Shown: positions 19,830 through 33,542 of the stretch, one piece after another
How positions within the stretch are numbered: position 1 is the stretch's first letter
Layout of the letters: each line of letters opens with the position of its first letter
Source of the DNA: an uncultured Spirochaetales bacterium
Lineage (GTDB): Bacteria; Spirochaetota; Spirochaetia; Sphaerochaetales; Sphaerochaetaceae
Direction of reading: 5' to 3'
Assembly: GCA_949299185.1 (NCBI GenBank)
Contig: CASFZR010000007.1
Span: 28,834-92,833, forward strand
DNA length: 64,000 nucleotides
Position numbers and translations under genes: made by a program
Notes under the pieces: generated by a model
The model's database searches: none
What the model was told of the DNA's origin: nothing
What the model saw: the letters and a program-made list of their open reading frames with translations, nothing else

Positions 19830-20084
19830 TTATTCATCAGACACCGGTATACATTCATCATAAAGATGCTCAGGAGCTATATCGCTATCATCAGGCCATA
19901 CGACAGAGGAATACATAGCCTTAGCCTTCATGAAAAAGGCGATATTCCTCTGCTTTGCGTAAACAGGATACATCAAGTCCTTCTTGAAATCATATACACC
20001 CTTCTTCCCATCGGCAAATGTCAGAAGCAATGTATAGTCATCCCTAGGAACAACGCTGACAACGCTCCATCTTGGCTTTATCAT
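19830..20084 (-). CDS. DUF2442 domain protein
   Basis: 84 residues starting IKPRWSVVSVVPRDDYTLLL, with TFADGKKGVYDFKKDL, the usual DUF2442 core. The ATG at 20084 is chosen because AGGAGG lies six bases upstream; an ATG at 20090 touches that site. The ribosome-binding site overlaps the end of the DUF4160 gene upstream, so the two are cotranslated. DUF2442 and DUF4160 genes commonly sit side by side; the pair has a toxin-antitoxin-like layout but no established activity that I can vouch for. Confidence 0.82.
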   Translation of the reverse strand: MIKPRWSVVSVVPRDDYTLLLTFADGKKGVYDFKKDLMYPVYAKQRNIAFFMKAKAMYSSVVWPDDSDIAPEHLYDECIPVSDE

Positions 20085-20095
20085 AAGCATCCTCC

Positions 20096-20356
20096 TTAGC
20101 GAAGAGGCTCTATAGAGAATAACTGCTCATGCTCCTCAACGAGCCTCCAGTCGGCTTCAAGCTCCTCTCTATGCAATTCTGTCCAGGCTGATATCAATCG
20201 TGTCTGACGTTTTGGCATCTCCCCATCGATCATATTGCCATCGAAATCGAACATAGCCTCATACTCCTGATAAAAAGCATGAAAATGAGGAGGGTTATGC
20301 TCATTTGAATTAAACATGCGGATCAGGATTCCATAAAACATAGAAATCGTAGGCAT
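20096..20356 (-). CDS. DUF4160 domain protein
   Basis: 86 residues beginning MPTISMFYGILIRMF. The family core is NEHNPPHFHAFYQEYEA (about residues 18-34), a histidine-rich strand-turn, then the helix AWTELHREELEADWRL. A good GGAGAGAAG site precedes the ATG at 20356. It lies eleven bases upstream of the DUF2442 gene, forming a two-gene unit. No function is known. Confidence 0.84.
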   Translation of the reverse strand: MPTISMFYGILIRMFNSNEHNPPHFHAFYQEYEAMFDFDGNMIDGEMPKRQTRLISAWTELHREELEADWRLVEEHEQLFSIEPLR

Positions 20357-20521
20357 ATTCTTCTCTCCATGCTTACATATTAACATAAGGACAAATGAGA
20401 ATCTCAACCAATCTGATTCATACAGGGATATTCATCATGCTGTCCAGCTTCTGAAGATACTCGTGCATTTCCCCCAGAGGCAATACAACACATACAATAC
20501 ACATATGGCCTGGGCGTGTCG

Positions 20522-24911: not shown

Positions 24912-26636
24912 GTGAGAAAACGCATCAATACCATCATAATGCTGCTATTAGCCGCTATCGCAATGCTTCCTGCAGGCAACCTGCAGAAGACATACCTCAT
25001 GACAGATGACATCTGGATAAGGGCGAACAGACTCTGCATCACGACCGGAAATCTCGGGCCGGCCCCTGTGTCTCCGACGACGGGTGCCGAGATCATGCAG
25101 GCGCTTGAGAGGCTGGACTACGCCTCACTCACGCAGCGGCAGAAGGATGAGTATGACTATATCGCATCCAGGCTTGAGGATCCCTCCGTCGGCATAACGA
25201 TAGAATCAAGATACGCAGAGTTCGATCCCGAGCTTTTCATCGGATTCGAGGCCTATGCGTTCAATAACGTGAAATCAACCCCTACCGACGAGTTCTTCAT
25301 CCCCTACCGCGACCGTATCCCTCTTATATACGGAGAGGCGCACGCGTACTTCGGGGATATCGTCTATCTTGACCTGCAGTACATGTTCAAGGACGGTCCT
25401 CAAGGCTTCATCGTGAATGACACGGGGCTGCATCAGGCGCAAGACGGGCTATTCTATAACTTCACCAACGCAGGATTCCTTCTCTCCCCTGCTCTCGATG
25501 GCTCATGGCAGTACTTCGGCAACAGCAGGAATATCTACACGGTACTGAACTACCAGCCGATAAAGGCCGGCGGCTCGATAGGAAACGACTTCCTCAACCT
25601 CTTCATCGGACGCTCACGGCAGGAGTTCGGCAATGGCATTACGGGCAATATGGTGATCGGAGACAACTTCTCGTATCAGGAGATGATCAAGCTTTCCGCC
25701 TTCTCAGATATCTTCTCCTACTATCTCTCGCTGACCCACTTCGACAACATAGAGGAAGGAAGGGATTTCCAGCTAGATGGCCTTCATCAGAACAGGCTTA
25801 TCCACAGGTTCGACCTCAACATACTCAACAAGGTGAGATTCGCGGTGAACATCGGCGCAGAGATGCTCACGGACGCACCATTCGATCTGAGGATGCTCAA
25901 CCCCATGATGATCATCCATAACTGGAACAACAACTCCGAGTCAGTCGATCTCGTGATCGGAAACGGCGATGAGCTGAACAACATCCTCGGCTTCGAGCTT
26001 GAATACGCCTTCCTGCCTGGCTTCATAGCGACAGGACAGCTCGTGATCGACCAGATGAGGATATACGGAGAGGTCAACAGCACCGTTCCTGCGGCCTTCG
26101 GCTTCCTGCTGAACGTGAGGAACATACTCACCCTCGATGACGGCTATCTCGATTCCTACATAGAGGGTGCCTATACCTCCCCCTATCTCTATCTGAACTA
26201 CAAGACGCTGGACGGTGAGGACTGCTATATGCTTGACCACATCATCGGCTACCGCTTCAGCCAGAACAATACGACGGAGGAGAGCTACACGGGATATATC
26301 TACGGTCCGGATGCGATCGTCCTTTCAATAGGAACCGAATATACCTCACTGGATGCCTGGAGCGTCAAGGGCAGCCTGCTCTATATGGCGCACGGGGACA
26401 ACGGCAAGGAGGACTGGAGGGACAGGAACAACAGGACCGGCCTGACGGACTCCACGCCGACGGGAATCGTCGAGCATACATTCTCCACGAGAGTAGGAGG
26501 AAGCTACTCATTCATGGAGAACCTCAAGCTCACCGCTGAGGTCGCAGGCATCTTCCAGTGGAACTATCATAACCAGCGCGACGTATTCCGTCCGACGTTC
26601 CAGGCCGCTATCGGGATATCCTGGACAGCACTATGA
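24912..26636 (+). CDS. Outer-membrane beta-barrel protein, Wzi-like (paralogue B)
   Basis: 574 residues from a GTG with GGAGG eight bases upstream. Signal peptide (residues 1-22), then the same helical start (DDIWIRANRLCITTGNLG) and the shared FGNGITGNMVIGDNFSYQEM segment as paralogue A, and strands to GISWTAL. It should sit in the outer membrane. The divergent arrangement of two related barrels with a 98-base shared control region suggests alternative or paired expression. A role in anchoring surface glycan is inference from the Wzi-like architecture. Confidence 0.78.
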   Translation: MRKRINTIIMLLLAAIAMLPAGNLQKTYLMTDDIWIRANRLCITTGNLGPAPVSPTTGAEIMQALERLDYASLTQRQKDEYDYIASRLEDPSVGITIESRYAEFDPELFIGFEAYAFNNVKSTPTDEFFIPYRDRIPLIYGEAHAYFGDIVYLDLQYMFKDGPQGFIVNDTGLHQAQDGLFYNFTNAGFLLSPALDGSWQYFGNSRNIYTVLNYQPIKAGGSIGNDFLNLFIGRSRQEFGNGITGNMVIGDNFSYQEMIKLSAFSDIFSYYLSLTHFDNIEEGRDFQLDGLHQNRLIHRFDLNILNKVRFAVNIGAEMLTDAPFDLRMLNPMMIIHNWNNNSESVDLVIGNGDELNNILGFELEYAFLPGFIATGQLVIDQMRIYGEVNSTVPAAFGFLLNVRNILTLDDGYLDSYIEGAYTSPYLYLNYKTLDGEDCYMLDHIIGYRFSQNNTTEESYTGYIYGPDAIVLSIGTEYTSLDAWSVKGSLLYMAHGDNGKEDWRDRNNRTGLTDSTPTGIVEHTFSTRVGGSYSFMENLKLTAEVAGIFQWNYHNQRDVFRPTFQAAIGISWTAL

Positions 26637-26802
26637 GCATACAGGGTCCCTTCCATCCGATAGAGAAGGGACTCCTTGATCCTCTCCTGCGGCATCTCCC
26701 TGCCCTTATGCGCATACGACTCATGCGTTCCGCTTCCGTAAAGCATCGGGAGATGTCTGGATCCTTACGACATTCGCTGCTGATCATCACAAAGCCATTC
26801 AT
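26608..26802 (-). pseudogene. Remnant downstream of an orphan leader copy
   Basis: An AGGAGG and ATG at 26802 follow a leader like those of the three small-protein genes. The 64-residue frame it opens (MNGFVMISSECRKDPD...) has no likeness to that family and runs into the 3' end of the barrel gene. I read it as what is left after a fourth copy was lost or joined to other DNA. A short functional peptide is possible but unsupported. Confidence 0.35.
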
Positions 26803-26897
26803 ATTGCCTCCTGCTATATATACGCCTTGGCCCTGCATTTTGACCAACGTGATGTCCTCATTGACTGATATAACGGCTGATGATACAGTCTGATTAG
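26803..26897. promoter_or_regulatory. Conserved bidirectional leader, copy A
   Basis: On the plus strand TTGACT (26861-26866), 17 bases, TACAGT (26884-26889) reads toward the 3' end of the first small-protein gene. On the minus strand TTGGTC and a TATAT box read leftward to the remnant. The block from the TATAT box to the TACAGT box is about 80 percent alike in copies A, B and C. Confidence 0.55.
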
Positions 26898-26990
26898 AAG
26901 AGCCGTGTAGGTCGGAGATGTCGACGGCAGCAGGATTCCATTGATCCTGGCCAGCAGGGTGCGTGACGAACACAGACGGCTCTTATTTTA
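26896..26990 (+). ncRNA. Candidate structured antisense RNA, copy A
   Basis: Downstream of the plus-strand promoter, AAGAGCCGT (26898-26906) pairs perfectly with ACGGCTCTT (26976-26984). Inside is a second hairpin CAGGAT/ATCCTG (26931-26936 with 26944-26949). ATTTTA follows the outer stem. The RNA would overlap the stop codon of the small-protein gene ending at 26983. Copies B and C have the same design with different stem sequences. Confidence 0.5.
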
Positions 26991-27480
26991 ATGACTTGAG
27001 ACAGGTGTCTGGCTTCTTCCCTGTCTTGAAATAGGTCATATATGGGACTATCTGCTGTGTATTGCTGTCTAGCTCGGCAACGCCTTTGAACCAATGGTCA
27101 TCAATCTTATTGATGAAAATCAGGGCCTTAGTCTTCGAATCATCGTCAATCAGGATATCCGAATCGGGAGAAGAGCTTGTAAATGTATCAAGCATCGCAA
27201 GATAATCTCCTACGCTAAGATCACCATGCCTGTTTACGGCATGATCGATGAAATAACCTCGATTGGAATAGACCCGAGGATCATCAACACCAAAATACCT
27301 AACGGCATCTATAGGCAATTCTGCAACAGGATATCTTTTATATCCTCCTGTCGCACTTATGATATCTGCCCTGAACATGCCTTTGTATTTCCTTATATCC
27401 TCTCCGGCAAGCCACTCCAGTATCCTTTCCTCATGCTCCTTCCTCCTCTCTTCAAAGCCATCAAGCATCTGCCGGGGCAT
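26983..27480 (-). CDS. Small PBECR-like protein, copy 1
   Basis: 165 residues, one of three tandem paralogues sharing the N-terminal (M)PRQMxxGFEERRKE and a core YFxxHAxxRHxxLSVxDYxxMxD. The core, followed by a beta-rich end (ALIFINKIDDHWFKGVAEL), resembles the phage/mobile-element barnase-EndoU-colicin-RelE-like (PBECR) nuclease group; this is a pattern-level inference, moderately supported. His-Ala-x2-Arg-His would supply active-site residues. Compared with copies 2 and 3 the C-terminus stops early; the region beyond the stop still resembles the others in another frame. AGGAGAC lies before the ATG. Confidence 0.68.
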   Translation of the reverse strand: MPRQMLDGFEERRKEHEERILEWLAGEDIRKYKGMFRADIISATGGYKRYPVAELPIDAVRYFGVDDPRVYSNRGYFIDHAVNRHGDLSVGDYLAMLDTFTSSSPDSDILIDDDSKTKALIFINKIDDHWFKGVAELDSNTQQIVPYMTYFKTGKKPDTCLKSLK

Positions 27481-27580
27481 ATCATGTCTCCTGATAGATA
27501 TATGCCCTAGCCCTGCATTTTGACCAACGTGATGTCTTCGTTGACTGATATAAAGGCTGATGATACATTCTGATTAATCT
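27481..27580. promoter_or_regulatory. Conserved bidirectional leader, copy B
   Basis: Minus strand: TTGGTC (27527-27522), 18-19 bases, a TATAT box, then AGGAGAC and the ATG of copy 1. Plus strand: TTGACT (27541-27546), 17 bases, TACATT (27564-27569), reading toward the 3' end of copy 2. Confidence 0.6.
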
Positions 27581-27675
27581 AAGCATCGTCTTGACTAGAG
27601 ATGGCTAAAGCGTCTGAGGACTATCTGTCCTCGGGGAGGGAGAGTGGAGTGCCGACCACTGGCGATGCTTCTGAT
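27576..27675 (+). ncRNA. Candidate structured antisense RNA, copy B
   Basis: AAGCATCG (27581-27588) pairs with CGATGCTT (27663-27670) and encloses the hairpin GAGGAC-tatct-GTCCTC (27616-27632). The 3' arm lies in the last codons of copy 2, so the RNA would be antisense to that gene's 3' end. A 41-codon frame from the ATG at 27600 also exists on this strand, but the other copies do not keep it. Confidence 0.5.
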
Positions 27676-28139
27676 ATCTCATGCCACTTCCGGCTTTTCC
27701 GCCTTCCACCAAAGAACGATCTGTAAAGGATAAGCCTGCCGGTATTTCCATCAAGGACGATTATGACCTGTCGTGATGGCTTCCCCTCCTTGAGTAAGAC
27801 AAGCGCACCATCATCCTGACTATACAGGCTATCGTAATCCGTCAATACATCAAGCATACCCACATAATCCTCTACGCCAAGTTCCTTATGACGATTGACG
27901 GCATGTTCTATGAAATAGGCAGGCCCCGCATAAACGCAAGGATCATCAGTTCCGTAGTACATCAGGATCTCATCAGGAACCTCTCCTACCGGAAGGAAAT
28001 CGTTTCCAACGACAGCTCTTATCTCACCGATCGTCTTTCCTGCCAAGCATCTATGATTCTCAGGGCTCAGCCATTTCCGTATCCTTTCCTCATACTCCTT
28101 CCTCCTTTCTTCAAAACCTTCACGCATCTGCCGGGGCAT
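27621..28139 (-). CDS. Small PBECR-like protein, copy 2
   Basis: 172 residues; paralogue of its two neighbours. N-terminal amphipathic MPRQMREGFEERRKEYEERI, then GKTIGEIRAVVG, VPDEILMYYGTDDP, the core YFIEHAVNRHKELGVEDYVG (about residues 75-94) and beta-strands ALVLLKEGKPSRQVIIVLDG ending RLILYRSFFGGRR. Same PBECR-like reading as copy 1, with Arg- and Tyr-rich last strands. The C-terminal 17 residues (ASPVVGTPLS...) align with those of copy 3. Own leader with AGGAGA ahead of the ATG. Confidence 0.7.
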   Translation of the reverse strand: MPRQMREGFEERRKEYEERIRKWLSPENHRCLAGKTIGEIRAVVGNDFLPVGEVPDEILMYYGTDDPCVYAGPAYFIEHAVNRHKELGVEDYVGMLDVLTDYDSLYSQDDGALVLLKEGKPSRQVIIVLDGNTGRLILYRSFFGGRRKSRKWHEISEASPVVGTPLSLPEDR

Positions 28140-28238
28140 ATAATATCTCCTGATAGATATACGCCCTGACCCTGCATCTAGACCAACGTGACATCTTCGT
28201 TGACGGATATGGCAGCAGATGATACATTCTAATAAACG
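28140..28238. promoter_or_regulatory. Conserved bidirectional leader, copy C
   Basis: Minus strand: TTGGTC, then GTATATC and AGGAGA before copy 2. Plus strand: TTGACG (28200-28205), 17 bases, TACATT (28223-28228), facing the 3' end of copy 3. Confidence 0.6.
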
Positions 28239-28325
28239 GCATCACGTAGACTGGAGATGGCGACAGCGGCTGATTATTCATCAGGCCTGTAGGGTGAGAG
28301 GCCGAACACCCGTGATGCTAATATC
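28235..28325 (+). ncRNA. Candidate structured antisense RNA, copy C
   Basis: GCATCACG (28239-28246) pairs with CGTGATGC (28311-28318); inside are CTGAT/ATCAG (28270-28284) and GGCCT/AGGCC (28284-28303), alternative or stacked hairpins. The 3' part overlaps the last codons of copy 3. Relative to copy B both arms of the outer stem have changed together. Confidence 0.5.
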
Positions 28326-28795
28326 TTCTTATTCGAATCCACTTCTCTGCTAGGTCCATAATACGAGATATATAGGATCGTATTATTACCATGGTTCTTT
28401 CCGATAATACATCTCCAATATCTATCTGACTCTCGCTTGGAAAAAATCAGGCGGCAATCATCTGCCACATCTGCAATGTATATATTCTCATAATCATGTA
28501 AGACATCGATCATCCTCACGTAATCCTCCACAGAGAGATCTGGATGTCGGGTGAAGGCATGTTCCATGAAATATGCCGCTCCGGAATATACACGAGGGTC
28601 ATCAACGCCAAAGAACTCCTGGGCAATGGAAGGGACCTCTCCTACAGGTAGATAAGCAGGGCTGATTCCAGCCATTATTTCCTTCAGCGTCTTGCCCTTG
28701 AAATGTTCCCTGTTCTCATTGCTCAGCCATTCACGTATCCGTCTTTCATACTCCTTCCTCCTCTCTTCGAATCCATCATGCATCTGCCGAGCCAT
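28274..28795 (-). CDS. Small PBECR-like protein, copy 3
   Basis: 173 residues from the ATG at 28795, which has AGGAGAC just upstream; a 13-residue longer frame exists but would include the leader. Same plan as copies 1 and 2: MARQMHDGFEERRKEYERRI, GKTLKEIMAGIS, FFGVDDPRVYSG, core YFMEHAFTRHPDLSVEDYVR, then CRLIFSKRESDRYWRCIIGK and NTILYISYYG. First of the tandem set on the minus strand. Its upstream leader lacks the plus-strand promoter found in copies A-C, as expected if that promoter belongs to a 3' antisense RNA of the preceding gene. Confidence 0.7.
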   Translation of the reverse strand: MARQMHDGFEERRKEYERRIREWLSNENREHFKGKTLKEIMAGISPAYLPVGEVPSIAQEFFGVDDPRVYSGAAYFMEHAFTRHPDLSVEDYVRMIDVLHDYENIYIADVADDCRLIFSKRESDRYWRCIIGKNHGNNTILYISYYGPSREVDSNKKILASRVFGLSPYRPDE

Positions 28796-28860
28796 ATAAT
28801 GTCTCCTGATAGATATACGCCCCAGCTCTGCCATCTGACCAACATCAGGTATCCGCTGAC
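28796..28860 (-). promoter_or_regulatory. Leader copy D, minus-strand part only
   Basis: Keeps CTATCAGGAGAC, the GTATAT box and TTGGTC (as GACCAA on plus) ahead of copy 3, but the likeness to copies A-C stops where their plus-strand promoter begins. Confidence 0.5.
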
Positions 28861-31931: not shown

Positions 31932-33542
31932 CTACTCCACCTTCTCCTTCCATTCCACGATCTGCCGCTTGTCCTTGCTTATATCCAGTCCAACGATATG
32001 CATCGTGATGCCGTTGCTCCTGGACCAATGGATGAACTTATCGGAATACCCCTTCGCCTCGATCTGCCTTATCGCAGACTCAGCGCTCTGGTCGATCTTA
32101 GTCTCGAAGATATATGCATGTCTGCCTGACCTGGCAAAGAGATCTATGCGGCCACGCGTGGTATGTTCCTCTCCTCTGGGAATGCTCTCAAGGGAGATAC
32201 CAAGCATCGAAAGGAAGAGACTGTCGAAGAATCTCTCATCAAGGCGGAAGCCATCATATGTCACGAACGTAAGCCCGTGGTTCAGGCACTCTATGATAGT
32301 CGCCGTATCACCAGCCTTCATTGCCTTTGCTATCTTATAGGCAATCGTATCGCTCAGGTTCACCTGAGGAGGAACATACACGCTCTCCCACTCATATGCA
32401 AGCGTCCTCAGCACCTCCTTGTTCGGAACGCGGAGACACAGCCTGCCCTCCTCATTCCTCTCTCCAGTGAATGTGAGGTAGCCAGTCATCAGCAACAGAG
32501 CCAGAAGCTTATCATCGGAAAGCGTACCGCCGGAAAGGAAGTCTATGATGCTGAAGGTCGCAAGGGAATCGAGATTGATCGACATATCACCGATCGCATC
32601 AAGCGACAGCTGATGCTTCCTCGCATAGTTAACGACTATCGTTGAGAGCCCTGTCCTGATCCAGTAGTTCTCAAGCTCAAGATAGTACATGAACATCCCG
32701 ATAGACACCGGATTGTATACCCGCACCCCTCCGGGTGAGAGGAGGTAGCCGTCATACATCTCCCTCAGCGCCTCATACACCCCCTCCTCGCTCATCCCCT
32801 CCTTCTCAGCATACTCCTCTATGCCCTCATGGAAGTACTCCCTCACCTCCTCCTCGGTATAGCCGAACATCCCTGCGAACCTGTCATCCATCGAGATGTC
32901 CACCAGGTTGTTCAGCCCGCTGAAGATGCCGAGTCCGCTGAACTTCAGGATCCCCGTTATGTAGACCAGATGCAGCCTCGGAGAGAGCCCCTTGAACACG
33001 GAATAGAACCTCCTCAAAGCCTGCTGTATCTCCGGAAGCCTCTCCGTCTCATCGCAGGAGTTGAGAGGCCTGTCGTACTCATCTATGAGGATCACTGGAG
33101 CGGAGTCATACTTGAGCCAAAGCTCATCGACAAGATCCGCTAGCATATCCTTGGGCTCAGCAAGTTCCATATCCAGCCCACATAGCCGGGCAGTACGCCG
33201 AAGCTCCCTTGACAGGAACGAATCTATGCCGGCAGACGTGAAGGTTCCGAGAATTGCGAAGTCTATGTGTATGACGGGATGGAACTCGTAGTCATAACCT
33301 GTACCGTCTATGTAGAGCCCCTTGAAGAGTTCCCTCTTACCCAAAAAGAGGCTCTCAAGGGTAAAGGCGAAGAGACTCTTCCCCATCCTCCGGGGAGCCG
33401 TACAGACCACGACATTGGAATCAAGATCGAGAAGCCTCTTGATATACATCGTCTTATCGACGTATACCGTTCCCCTCTTCCTGATACGCTCAAAATCGAA
33501 GCTTGAGAAATTCGCCCTATCCATATCCTTCTCTCTGGCCAT
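31932..33542 (-). CDS. AAA-ATPase-like / PD-(D/E)XK nuclease superfamily protein
   Basis: 536 residues of the common gut-bacterial family pairing an AAA-ATPase-like N-terminus (YVDKTMYIKRLLD, P-loop variant CTAPRRMGKSLFAFTLESLF, Walker B PVILIDEYDRPLNS) with a C-terminal nuclease-fold domain (GRIDLFARSGRHAYIFETKI, whose D-x(n)-E-x-K residues fit PD-(D/E)XK). Often present in many copies per genome; function not established. GGAGG precedes the start. Its leader resembles that of the three PBECR-like genes. Confidence 0.85.
   Translation of the reverse strand: MAREKDMDRANFSSFDFERIRKRGTVYVDKTMYIKRLLDLDSNVVVCTAPRRMGKSLFAFTLESLFLGKRELFKGLYIDGTGYDYEFHPVIHIDFAILGTFTSAGIDSFLSRELRRTARLCGLDMELAEPKDMLADLVDELWLKYDSAPVILIDEYDRPLNSCDETERLPEIQQALRRFYSVFKGLSPRLHLVYITGILKFSGLGIFSGLNNLVDISMDDRFAGMFGYTEEEVREYFHEGIEEYAEKEGMSEEGVYEALREMYDGYLLSPGGVRVYNPVSIGMFMYYLELENYWIRTGLSTIVVNYARKHQLSLDAIGDMSINLDSLATFSIIDFLSGGTLSDDKLLALLLMTGYLTFTGERNEEGRLCLRVPNKEVLRTLAYEWESVYVPPQVNLSDTIAYKIAKAMKAGDTATIIECLNHGLTFVTYDGFRLDERFFDSLFLSMLGISLESIPRGEEHTTRGRIDLFARSGRHAYIFETKIDQSAESAIRQIEAKGYSDKFIHWSRSNGITMHIVGLDISKDKRQIVEWKEKVE

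What the first reader, a model, noticed from the sequence alone, without database searches (positions are those of the whole stretch)
26803..28860. Triplicated small-protein module with a convergent antisense RNA at each 3' end
Three tandem paralogous genes (copies 1-3) share a PBECR-like nuclease-type core. Between them lies a conserved block with two back-to-back promoters: one drives the next gene, the other (TTGACT/G, 17 bases, TACATT/TACAGT in all three copies) fires toward the 3' end of the preceding gene. This is the geometry of type I toxin-antitoxin pairs whose antitoxin RNA overlaps the toxin mRNA 3' end (txpA/ratA, bsrG/SR4). The leader of copy 3, with no gene before it, lacks the second promoter, as this model predicts. 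A nuclease-type toxin controlled this way would be a new combination.
Basis: partly seen in the sequence, partly recalled or inferred. Interest (0 to 1): 0.88.

Follow-up and report, generated by a model that had tools for sequence, protein, structure and literature searches.

The report
RNA gene opposite phage-type nuclease genes
Three neighbouring bacterial genes for a phage-type RNA-cutting enzyme each carry, on the opposite strand of their last part, what looks like a small folded RNA gene with its own start signal, and the same pair recurs in distant gut bacteria and viral contigs, which suggests a toxin that carries its own RNA antidote.

Summary
Each of three PBECR3-like nuclease genes (minus strand) is overlapped at its 3' end by a convergent plus-strand RNA element of about 85 nt (26898-26984, 27581-27670, 28238-28320): a closing stem, three arms and a contact between the first and third loops, the arm order of a tRNA. 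In 29 sequences 19 of 21 pairs show changes on both sides. The element lies at the same place in 23 of 23 PBECR3-like gene places that could be tested, in Spirochaetota, Bacteroidota, one Puniceicoccales MAG and viral contigs; ten of these trained no model. The promoter-like signal fits the host: TTGAC-17-TAnnnT in 7 of 12 rows of the genus, TAnnTTTG in 10 of 12 Bacteroidota rows. No Rfam family matches above chance level. The window genes look like cut-down remains of a phage polyvalent protein that kept nuclease plus RNA. Best reading: an RNA antidote encoded inside the nuclease gene, acting more likely on the protein (type III-like) than by antisense (type I). The RNA is well supported; transcription and antidote function are inferred.

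The parts
26983..27480 (-). copy 1, PBECR3-like nuclease gene, 165 aa
   Evidence: Pfam PBECR3 E 0.0011, 19.3 bits, below the curated cut-off of 30
27621..28139 (-). copy 2, PBECR3-like nuclease gene, 172 aa
   Evidence: no Pfam hit alone; aligns with copies 1 and 3
28274..28795 (-). copy 3, PBECR3-like nuclease gene, 173 aa from this start (an upstream ATG at 28834 gives 186 aa)
26898..26984 (+). RNA element 1, antisense to the 3' end of copy 1
   Evidence: 65.1 bits; the stop codon of copy 1 lies at its end
27581..27670 (+). RNA element 2, antisense to the 3' end of copy 2
   Evidence: 80.8 bits
28238..28320 (+). RNA element 3, antisense to the 3' end of copy 3 (model match 28237-28320)
   Evidence: 82.9 bits
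26861..26889 (+). promoter-like TTGACT-17-TACAGT of RNA 1
27541..27569 (+). promoter-like TTGACT-17-TACATT of RNA 2
28200..28228 (+). promoter-like TTGACG-17-TACATT of RNA 3
27481..27540 (-). leader of copy 1 with ribosome-binding-site-like AGGAGA
   Evidence: identity 0.85 and 0.80 to the leaders of copies 2 and 3
28140..28199 (-). leader of copy 2
28796..28855 (-). leader of copy 3; no RNA promoter behind it
26800..26860 (-). fourth copy of the leader, beyond RNA 1, without a nuclease gene
   Evidence: 0.70-0.83 identity to the other leaders

Best explanation
Each unit is a toxin-RNA pair taken from a phage polyvalent protein. The minus-strand gene makes a BECR-like endoribonuclease (His in the N-terminal helix, Ser/Thr in the last strand). 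A separate promoter on the other strand, placed so that transcription would start at or close to the closing stem, makes an RNA of about 85-130 nt whose arms and loop contact follow the arm order of a tRNA. The RNA is encoded inside the 3' end of the nuclease gene, so the two cannot be separated. The RNA most likely binds the nuclease and blocks it, perhaps as a decoy for a tRNA-like substrate, and so protects the cell that makes the protein. In the phage form the nuclease would be injected without the RNA and be free to act; in the window the nuclease and RNA survive as small cut-down copies. Shown here: the conserved structure, its promoter-like signals, its fixed place opposite the nuclease gene, and the fold class at a weak level. 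Inferred: transcription, toxicity, binding, protection, the injected phage form.
For: Covariation: 19 of 21 pairs with both-side changes, 147 such cells against 43.3 +- 5.3 in shuffles, lost on sliding by 1-3 columns (alignment fitted to the model); in 12 genus sequences 15 of 23 pairs, including two of three loop-loop pairs. Loop-loop: a complementary G+C-rich triplet in 24 of 29 rows, 10.0 +- 2.4 with shuffled loops; any such triplet was counted, and in L068, L072, L073, L074 and L075 the one reported is not the usual GGC/GCC. Strand: 35 G-U against 12 A-C cells, p 0.0005, optimistic because rows are related. Association: 16 of 16 testable relatives from a protein-first scan, 4 of 4 viral relatives, 3 of 3 window copies, on the opposite strand at the end of the domain. 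RNA-first: in 393 genomes of one order the only match at E <= 1e-4 is the known place beside a nuclease gene (strict filters, 11 candidates scored per genome). Promoters: TAnnTTTG ending 0-2 nt before the RNA in 10 of 12 Bacteroidota rows (shuffled mean 0.22), TTGA[CT] and TAnnnT with a 14-18 base spacer in 8 of 14 spirochaete/other rows (shuffled mean 0.15). Terminator-like hairpin after the RNA in 13 of 17 rows from outside the genus. Catalytic pattern: H79, H84, Y92 invariant and Ser/Thr at 144 in 18 of 18, as described for PBECR in PMC5512222 (passages). RNA pair on contig C2 without a nuclease gene, behind TTGACA-16-TATAAA. Predicted-structure matches at E <= 0.001 among viral proteins: four phage proteins, one named PolyVal ADP-ribosyltransferase.
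Against: No expression, binding or toxicity data. In the window's genus the -10 boxes are weak (TACATT, TACAGT, TACTGT); of 12 RNAs, L022, L023 and the second C2 unit do not match the promoter pattern and L024 only with a 14-base spacer; none of 12 has a separate terminator hairpin by my criteria. The antisense hexamers in spirochaetes are also the reverse complement of conserved codons (TVSS..EDVN), so part of their conservation can be coding, and block 1 of the window is still an open frame. Five of 29 rows lack a loop-loop triplet. Not every RNA has a nuclease gene: the C2 pair, L022 and L023 do not. tRNA likeness is of arm order only; ARAGORN finds no tRNA. The structural match to BECR toxins is weak. 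The window copies do not reach the Pfam PBECR3 cut-off. The Bacteroidota and Puniceicoccales loci are mostly MAG contigs, so their assignment can be wrong.
Confidence: 0.55

Rival explanations
1. Type I-like control: the RNA base-pairs with the 3' end of the nuclease mRNA and leads to its degradation or blocks translation, as RatA does for txpA.
For: The RNA is complementary to the 3' part of the mRNA by its place; RatA acts at the 3' end of txpA mRNA (PMC4147584 passages); SymE/SymR and RalR/RalA show that nuclease toxins can be type I.
Against: Antisense pairing does not need a conserved folded shape; stems are kept by compensatory changes while the sequence diverges, and loop-loop contacts are mostly kept.
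Confidence: 0.2
2. The RNA is a cofactor, guide or substrate of the nuclease, or regulates another target, and is not an antidote.
For: RNA pair without a nuclease gene on C2; PMC5512222 discusses phage or host RNA, including CRISPR RNA, as possible PBECR targets (passages).
Against: In the genomes searched the RNA was not found away from such genes or their remains, except the C2 pair and L022 at a contig end.
Confidence: 0.17
3. The structure acts as DNA or in the mRNA strand: a recombination site between protein modules (attC-like) or a palindromic selfish insert inside coding genes.
For: It lies at a module boundary of long phage-type proteins, occurs in tandem, and the coding strand is open through it in several relatives.
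Against: G-U excess on the antisense strand, promoter and terminator signals at its ends; no TIGR02249 integron integrase over the cut-off in the genome; only 5 clear copies in the genome.
Confidence: 0.05
4. By-product: conserved peptide motifs create promoter-like and palindromic DNA by chance, and there is no RNA gene.
For: The spirochaete -35/-10 motifs are the reverse complement of conserved codons; in L056 such a motif occurs behind a MuF_C domain where I saw no hairpin; block 1 of the window is an open frame.
Against: A compensatory pair between L021 and the first C2 unit changes an amino acid on both sides of the closing stem; the promoter-like signal changes type with the phylum; blocks 2 and 3 stay conserved though their frame is broken.
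Confidence: 0.03

Closest known systems
Type III toxin-antitoxin systems (ToxIN, CptIN, TenpIN)
   Same: Endoribonuclease paired with a structured RNA that has tertiary (pseudoknot or loop-loop) contacts; single or tandem RNA units.
   Different: Type III RNA lies upstream in the same operon, with a terminator before the toxin gene (PMC5086642 passages); here the RNA is convergent, inside the 3' end of the toxin gene on the other strand, mostly a single unit, and the toxin is BECR-like.
Type I systems with 3'-overlapping antisense RNA (txpA/ratA, bsrG/SR4) or nuclease toxin (SymE/SymR, RalR/RalA)
   Same: Cis-encoded antisense RNA; nuclease toxins occur (PMC4147584 passages).
   Different: Here the RNA has a fold conserved across phyla; the toxin is a phage PBECR-like domain, not a small hydrophobic peptide.
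PBECR domains of phage polyvalent proteins, including MuF-C (PMC5512222)
   Same: Domain family, catalytic His plus Ser/Thr, solo and polyvalent forms, phage context (passages).
   Different: No RNA partner turned up in the passages seen ('noncoding RNA' occurs 0 times in that paper) or in the listings of the paper searches.
MuF polymorphic toxins of temperate phages (PMC5576092)
   Same: Phage-borne nuclease toxin that calls for protection of the producer.
   Different: There the proposed protection is a small downstream immunity ORF (passages); here the candidate is an RNA on the opposite strand.

Membership tests
PBECR3 / BECR-fold nucleases | Pfam PBECR3 score over the curated cut-off | tested here: not met
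   Window: copy 1 19.3 bits against 30, copies 2 and 3 no PBECR3 hit. Of 18 aligned members 14 match at E <= 0.01, best 1.6e-11. Hence 'PBECR3-like'.
PBECR3 / BECR-fold nucleases | His in the N-terminal helix and Ser/Thr in the late strand | tested here: met
   H79 and H84 invariant, helix 73-83; Ser/Thr 144 in 18 of 18, strand 139-146; description in PMC5512222 passages
PBECR3 / BECR-fold nucleases | BECR fold | tested here: inconclusive
Type III toxin-antitoxin | RNA binds and blocks the toxin protein | not testable with these tools
   needs binding and toxicity assays
Type III toxin-antitoxin | Repeat RNA upstream of the toxin in one operon, terminator between | tested here: not met
   RNA convergent at the 3' end, own promoter-like signal; definition from PMC5086642 passages
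Type III toxin-antitoxin | Pseudoknotted or tertiary-folded RNA antitoxin | tested here: met
   prediction only: loop-loop triplet in 24 of 29 rows; covarying in the genus
Type I toxin-antitoxin | RNA complementary to the toxin mRNA | tested here: met
   RNA overlaps the 3' end of each gene on the other strand
Type I toxin-antitoxin | RNA acts on translation or stability of the mRNA | not testable with these tools
   no expression data
Integron gene cassettes | Integron integrase in the genome | tested here: not met
   no TIGR02249 match over the cut-off; only XerC/D-like ORFs on C12. Genome 95% complete.
Known Rfam RNA families | match at the RNA sites | tested here: not met
   Window stretch and 10 loci scanned, 8 of them with the RNA. 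Only overlap: PART1_3 on L031, 17.8 bits against a cut-off of 40, E 4.3, taken as chance.

The most novel reading that the evidence does not exclude
A new class of toxin-RNA system in which a phage-delivered RNase and a tRNA-shaped inhibitor RNA are encoded on opposite strands of the same DNA, so that the antidote gene lies inside the toxin gene. The pair is conserved over two phyla at least (Spirochaetota, Bacteroidota), with a third resting on one Puniceicoccales MAG contig, and the RNA promoter is rewritten to suit the host phylum. A second, shorter hairpin class behind MuF_C nuclease domains may be the same idea with another RNA.
Probability: 0.4. Interest if true: 0.93.

Novelty: new variant of a known kind. 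Interest (0 to 1): 0.86.

Why it matters
Phage polyvalent proteins carry RNase domains, and how the producing cell stays safe is not settled in the passages I saw. An RNA antidote encoded antisense inside the nuclease gene would answer this for one family, gives a directly testable pair of about 170 aa plus 85 nt, and adds an RNA family that Rfam 15 did not match, with a rare case of two overlapping genes that both show selection. If the RNA mimics tRNA it would also point to the substrate of these nucleases.

Tried and rejected
Integron cassette array: rejected; no integron integrase over the cut-off and the ends of the element lack a fixed core. Leader peptide in the block: rejected; stops in the old frame of blocks 2 and 3 and no start seen. 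Rfam and tRNA search: no match above chance. First AlphaFold2 job from three sequences was poor, pLDDT 43.5, and its fold search is ignored. My first pairing scheme for arm 2 was replaced after RNAalifold and a column scan. Model R2 was built with one mistyped pair in arm 3, 34-56 in place of 34-54; the counts were redone with the right pair, and R3 does not carry it. Viral-contig scans with close queries found nothing; the deeper alignment found four. Phage and plasmid records: no relative of the L074 nuclease at E <= 1e-3. PHROGs: no family for the window copies. Phylum-wide search with R2: 2 of 392 genomes, both of the window's genus (strict filters). Weak hits of R1 in the own and other genomes (L018, L019, L020, L025-L028; E 0.06 to 2.65) were dropped as chance.

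Results against the reading: no terminator hairpin in the window's genus, weak -10 boxes, RNAs without a nuclease gene, window proteins under the Pfam cut-off, an open frame over block 1. The M-element sequences were picked by eye, so their test is biased; one of 11 (L047) has no good stem.
Full report
What is in the window. Three minus-strand genes of 165, 172 and 173-186 aa lie in tandem at 26983-28834. They are 39-46% identical in protein and 54-57% in DNA; third codon positions are only 43-45% identical. Between them lie blocks that are much better conserved: the segment from the plus-strand -35 box to the RNA start is 76-92% identical (three copies), and the gene-side leader 70-85% (four copies). 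A stop codon separates every block from its nuclease frame; in the old frame blocks 2 and 3 have one and two further stops, while block 1 is still an open frame (26608-26973). So present-day coding is an unlikely cause of the conservation of blocks 2 and 3, and not excluded for block 1.

The RNA. The genome holds five clear copies of an element that starts just after these hexamers: three in the window and two in tandem on contig C2 (next hit E 0.21). The C2 pair has no nuclease gene beside it and sits behind a different, stronger promoter-like sequence, TTGACA-16-TATAAA. A covariance model from these five found relatives in other genomes of the genus; with the second model 7 of 49 genomes have it. 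The structure is a closing stem of 8-9 bp, three hairpin arms, and a contact between the loops of arms 1 and 3 (commonly GGC with GCC). With 12 genus sequences, 15 of 23 pairs have changes on both sides, including two of the three loop-loop pairs. G-U cells outnumber A-C cells, so the plus strand, antisense to the gene, is the folded one: 12 to 2 in the genus, 35 to 12 in all 29.

It belongs to the nuclease. Searching by protein, 3 of 140 genomes of the family have relatives of copy 3, with 6 gene places in all (one split by a frameshift), and each has the RNA at its 3' end. A scan of GTDB genomes with the protein alignment gave 17 loci: three are places already seen in the genus (L060, L061, L062), twelve come from Bacteroidota records, one from a record titled Spirochaetes and one from Puniceicoccales. 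Model R2, trained on genus sequences only, already hit the antisense strand at the gene end in seven Bacteroidota loci, E 1.5e-5 to 0.12. Model R3 hits 16 of the 16 loci whose gene end is on the contig; the 17th, L076, ends inside the gene. Six of these 16 (L066, L067, L068, L069, L071, L073) and all four viral relatives found later (L088-L091) trained no model and still match at the expected place and strand, with rough E-values from 2.9e-7 to 3.4e-14. L089 and L090 gave the same match. Counting the three window copies, the three genus loci, the 13 others and the four viral ones gives 23 of 23 gene places. In the other direction, the ten source genomes searched whole have no copy beyond these places at E <= 0.01 (L070's record was not held), and 393 genomes of one order gave only the known place (strict filters that lose weak matches).

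Statistics over 29 sequences. 19 of 21 pairs have changes on both sides; 147 cells against 43.3 +- 5.3 in shuffles; 92% of cells paired against at most 50% when slid. The alignment is fitted to the model, which favours the structure; the held-out hits and the fixed place do not depend on that. A complementary G+C-rich triplet between the loops is present in 24 of 29, 10.0 +- 2.4 with shuffled loops; the count accepts any such triplet, not only the GGC/GCC one.

Signals at its ends. In 10 of 12 Bacteroidota rows TAnnTTTG, the -7 box of Bacteroidota promoters (recalled, no call), ends 0-2 nt before the element, mean 0.22 in shuffles; of the two misses, one (L063) has TACCTTTA and the other is L068. 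In 6 of these 10, and in L063, a TTTG lies 17-21 nt further up. Of three viral rows two have TAnnTTTG and one has TTGACT-17-TACAGT. In the window's genus 7 of 12 rows have TTGAC with a 17-base spacer and TAnnnT; with spacers of 14-18 it is 8 of 14 spirochaete and other rows, mean 0.15 in shuffles. Behind the RNA, 13 of 17 rows from outside the genus have a hairpin with a T-rich tail; none of 12 in the genus has one by the same rule. A promoter-like signal that changes type with the host phylum at the same place is the strongest sign that the RNA is really transcribed.

Origin. The coding strand is open through the element in many relatives: the nuclease domain, a linker that overlaps the RNA, and in some further domains, up to a 4510-aa ORF in viral contig L089, where a portal-like ORF follows (the name portal is my reading). 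PMC5512222 (passages seen) describes PBECR RNase domains, of which MuF-C is one, in phage polyvalent proteins thought to be packaged and injected, and solo versions. Among predicted viral structures the model of copy 3 matches four phage proteins at E <= 0.001, one named PolyVal ADP-ribosyltransferase. In the window the genes stop inside or at the end of the RNA, and the rest of the long protein is gone. So the window copies look like cut-down remains in which nuclease, RNA and RNA promoter were kept together.

How it may work. An RNase with a convergent, strictly linked, folded RNA is best read as a toxin with an RNA antidote. The conserved shape and loop-loop contact favour binding to the protein; the order of arms, with contact of loops 1 and 3, is that of a tRNA, and BECR RNases often cut tRNA or rRNA (PMC5512222 passages), so a decoy is plausible. 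Antisense control at the mRNA 3' end stays possible. The C2 pair could be a stand-alone antidote. These steps are inferred.

Novelty. Rfam 15 has no match above chance at the RNA (the only overlap is PART1_3 on L031 at E 4.3). Paper searches for the combination listed nothing on an RNA partner of PBECR (search listings only). Nuclease toxins under antisense RNA are known (PMC4147584 passages), and type III RNA antitoxins are known (PMC5086642 passages). New here, as far as these searches go, are the RNA family, its place inside the gene it may control, and the phage PBECR-like partner.

A second class. Behind MuF_C nuclease domains in the family (13 of 140 genomes with a relative) another short hairpin follows a TTGAC-17-TATnnT-like motif, in two tandem copies in this genome (L003 2097-2195). 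Its outer stem differs in sequence between genomes but stays complementary in 10 of 11 sequences. These were picked by eye; I report them as a lead. The conserved peptide ILxKxDIVN on the coding strand produces the promoter-like motif, also where I saw no hairpin (L056).

Noticed in passing
L003 2040-2708 (-) (G000:C1:96010-96675), repeats at 2097-2195: MuF_C gene whose 3' end carries two tandem 45-nt hairpin units behind TTGACG-17-TATCCT on the opposite strand; similar hairpins behind MuF_C domains in other genera of the family.
   Followed up: partly
L003 1501-1541, upstream of a 145-aa ORF at 1546-1983: The gene-side leader of the window copies (TTGGTCAAAATG..TATATATCAGGAGG) recurs, 85% identical over 41 bases, before an unrelated ORF that looks like a single-strand DNA-binding protein (my reading, not searched).
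   Followed up: no
L002 1716-1955 (-) and 2244-2921 (+): 79-aa and 225-aa ORFs beside the tandem RNA pair on C2; no Pfam match. The 79-aa gene ends about 45 nt from the RNA pair.
   Followed up: partly
window 26567-26797 (-): Behind the fourth leader copy lies a broken ORF (MNGFVMISSECRKDPDIS...), perhaps a displaced fourth gene.
   Followed up: no
window 19830-20407 (-): DUF2442 and DUF4160 genes side by side, a pair that resembles small toxin-antitoxin operons (recalled).
   Followed up: no
window 31932-33542 (-): AAA-ATPase_like plus PDDEXK_9 protein.
   Followed up: no
L023 327-1278 (-): SocA_Panacea gene and a weak PemK-like gene lie next to an RNA copy and a piece of the polyvalent protein.
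   Followed up: no
L063-L075, nuclease C-terminus (KKPYA..SIR): In many Bacteroidota loci the conserved C-terminal peptide of the nuclease is read from the same DNA as the terminator-like hairpin of the RNA on the other strand.
   Followed up: partly
L065 6452-6541 and 6758-6844 (-): Two RNA units, 306 nt apart, in one open frame, with a partial repeat of the nuclease C-terminus between them: a tandem duplication like that in the window.
   Followed up: no
L074 1195-1686 (+): Residues 92-162 of this nuclease match the candidate defence family PDC-S60 of PADLOC at E 8e-5; the window copies do not.
   Followed up: no
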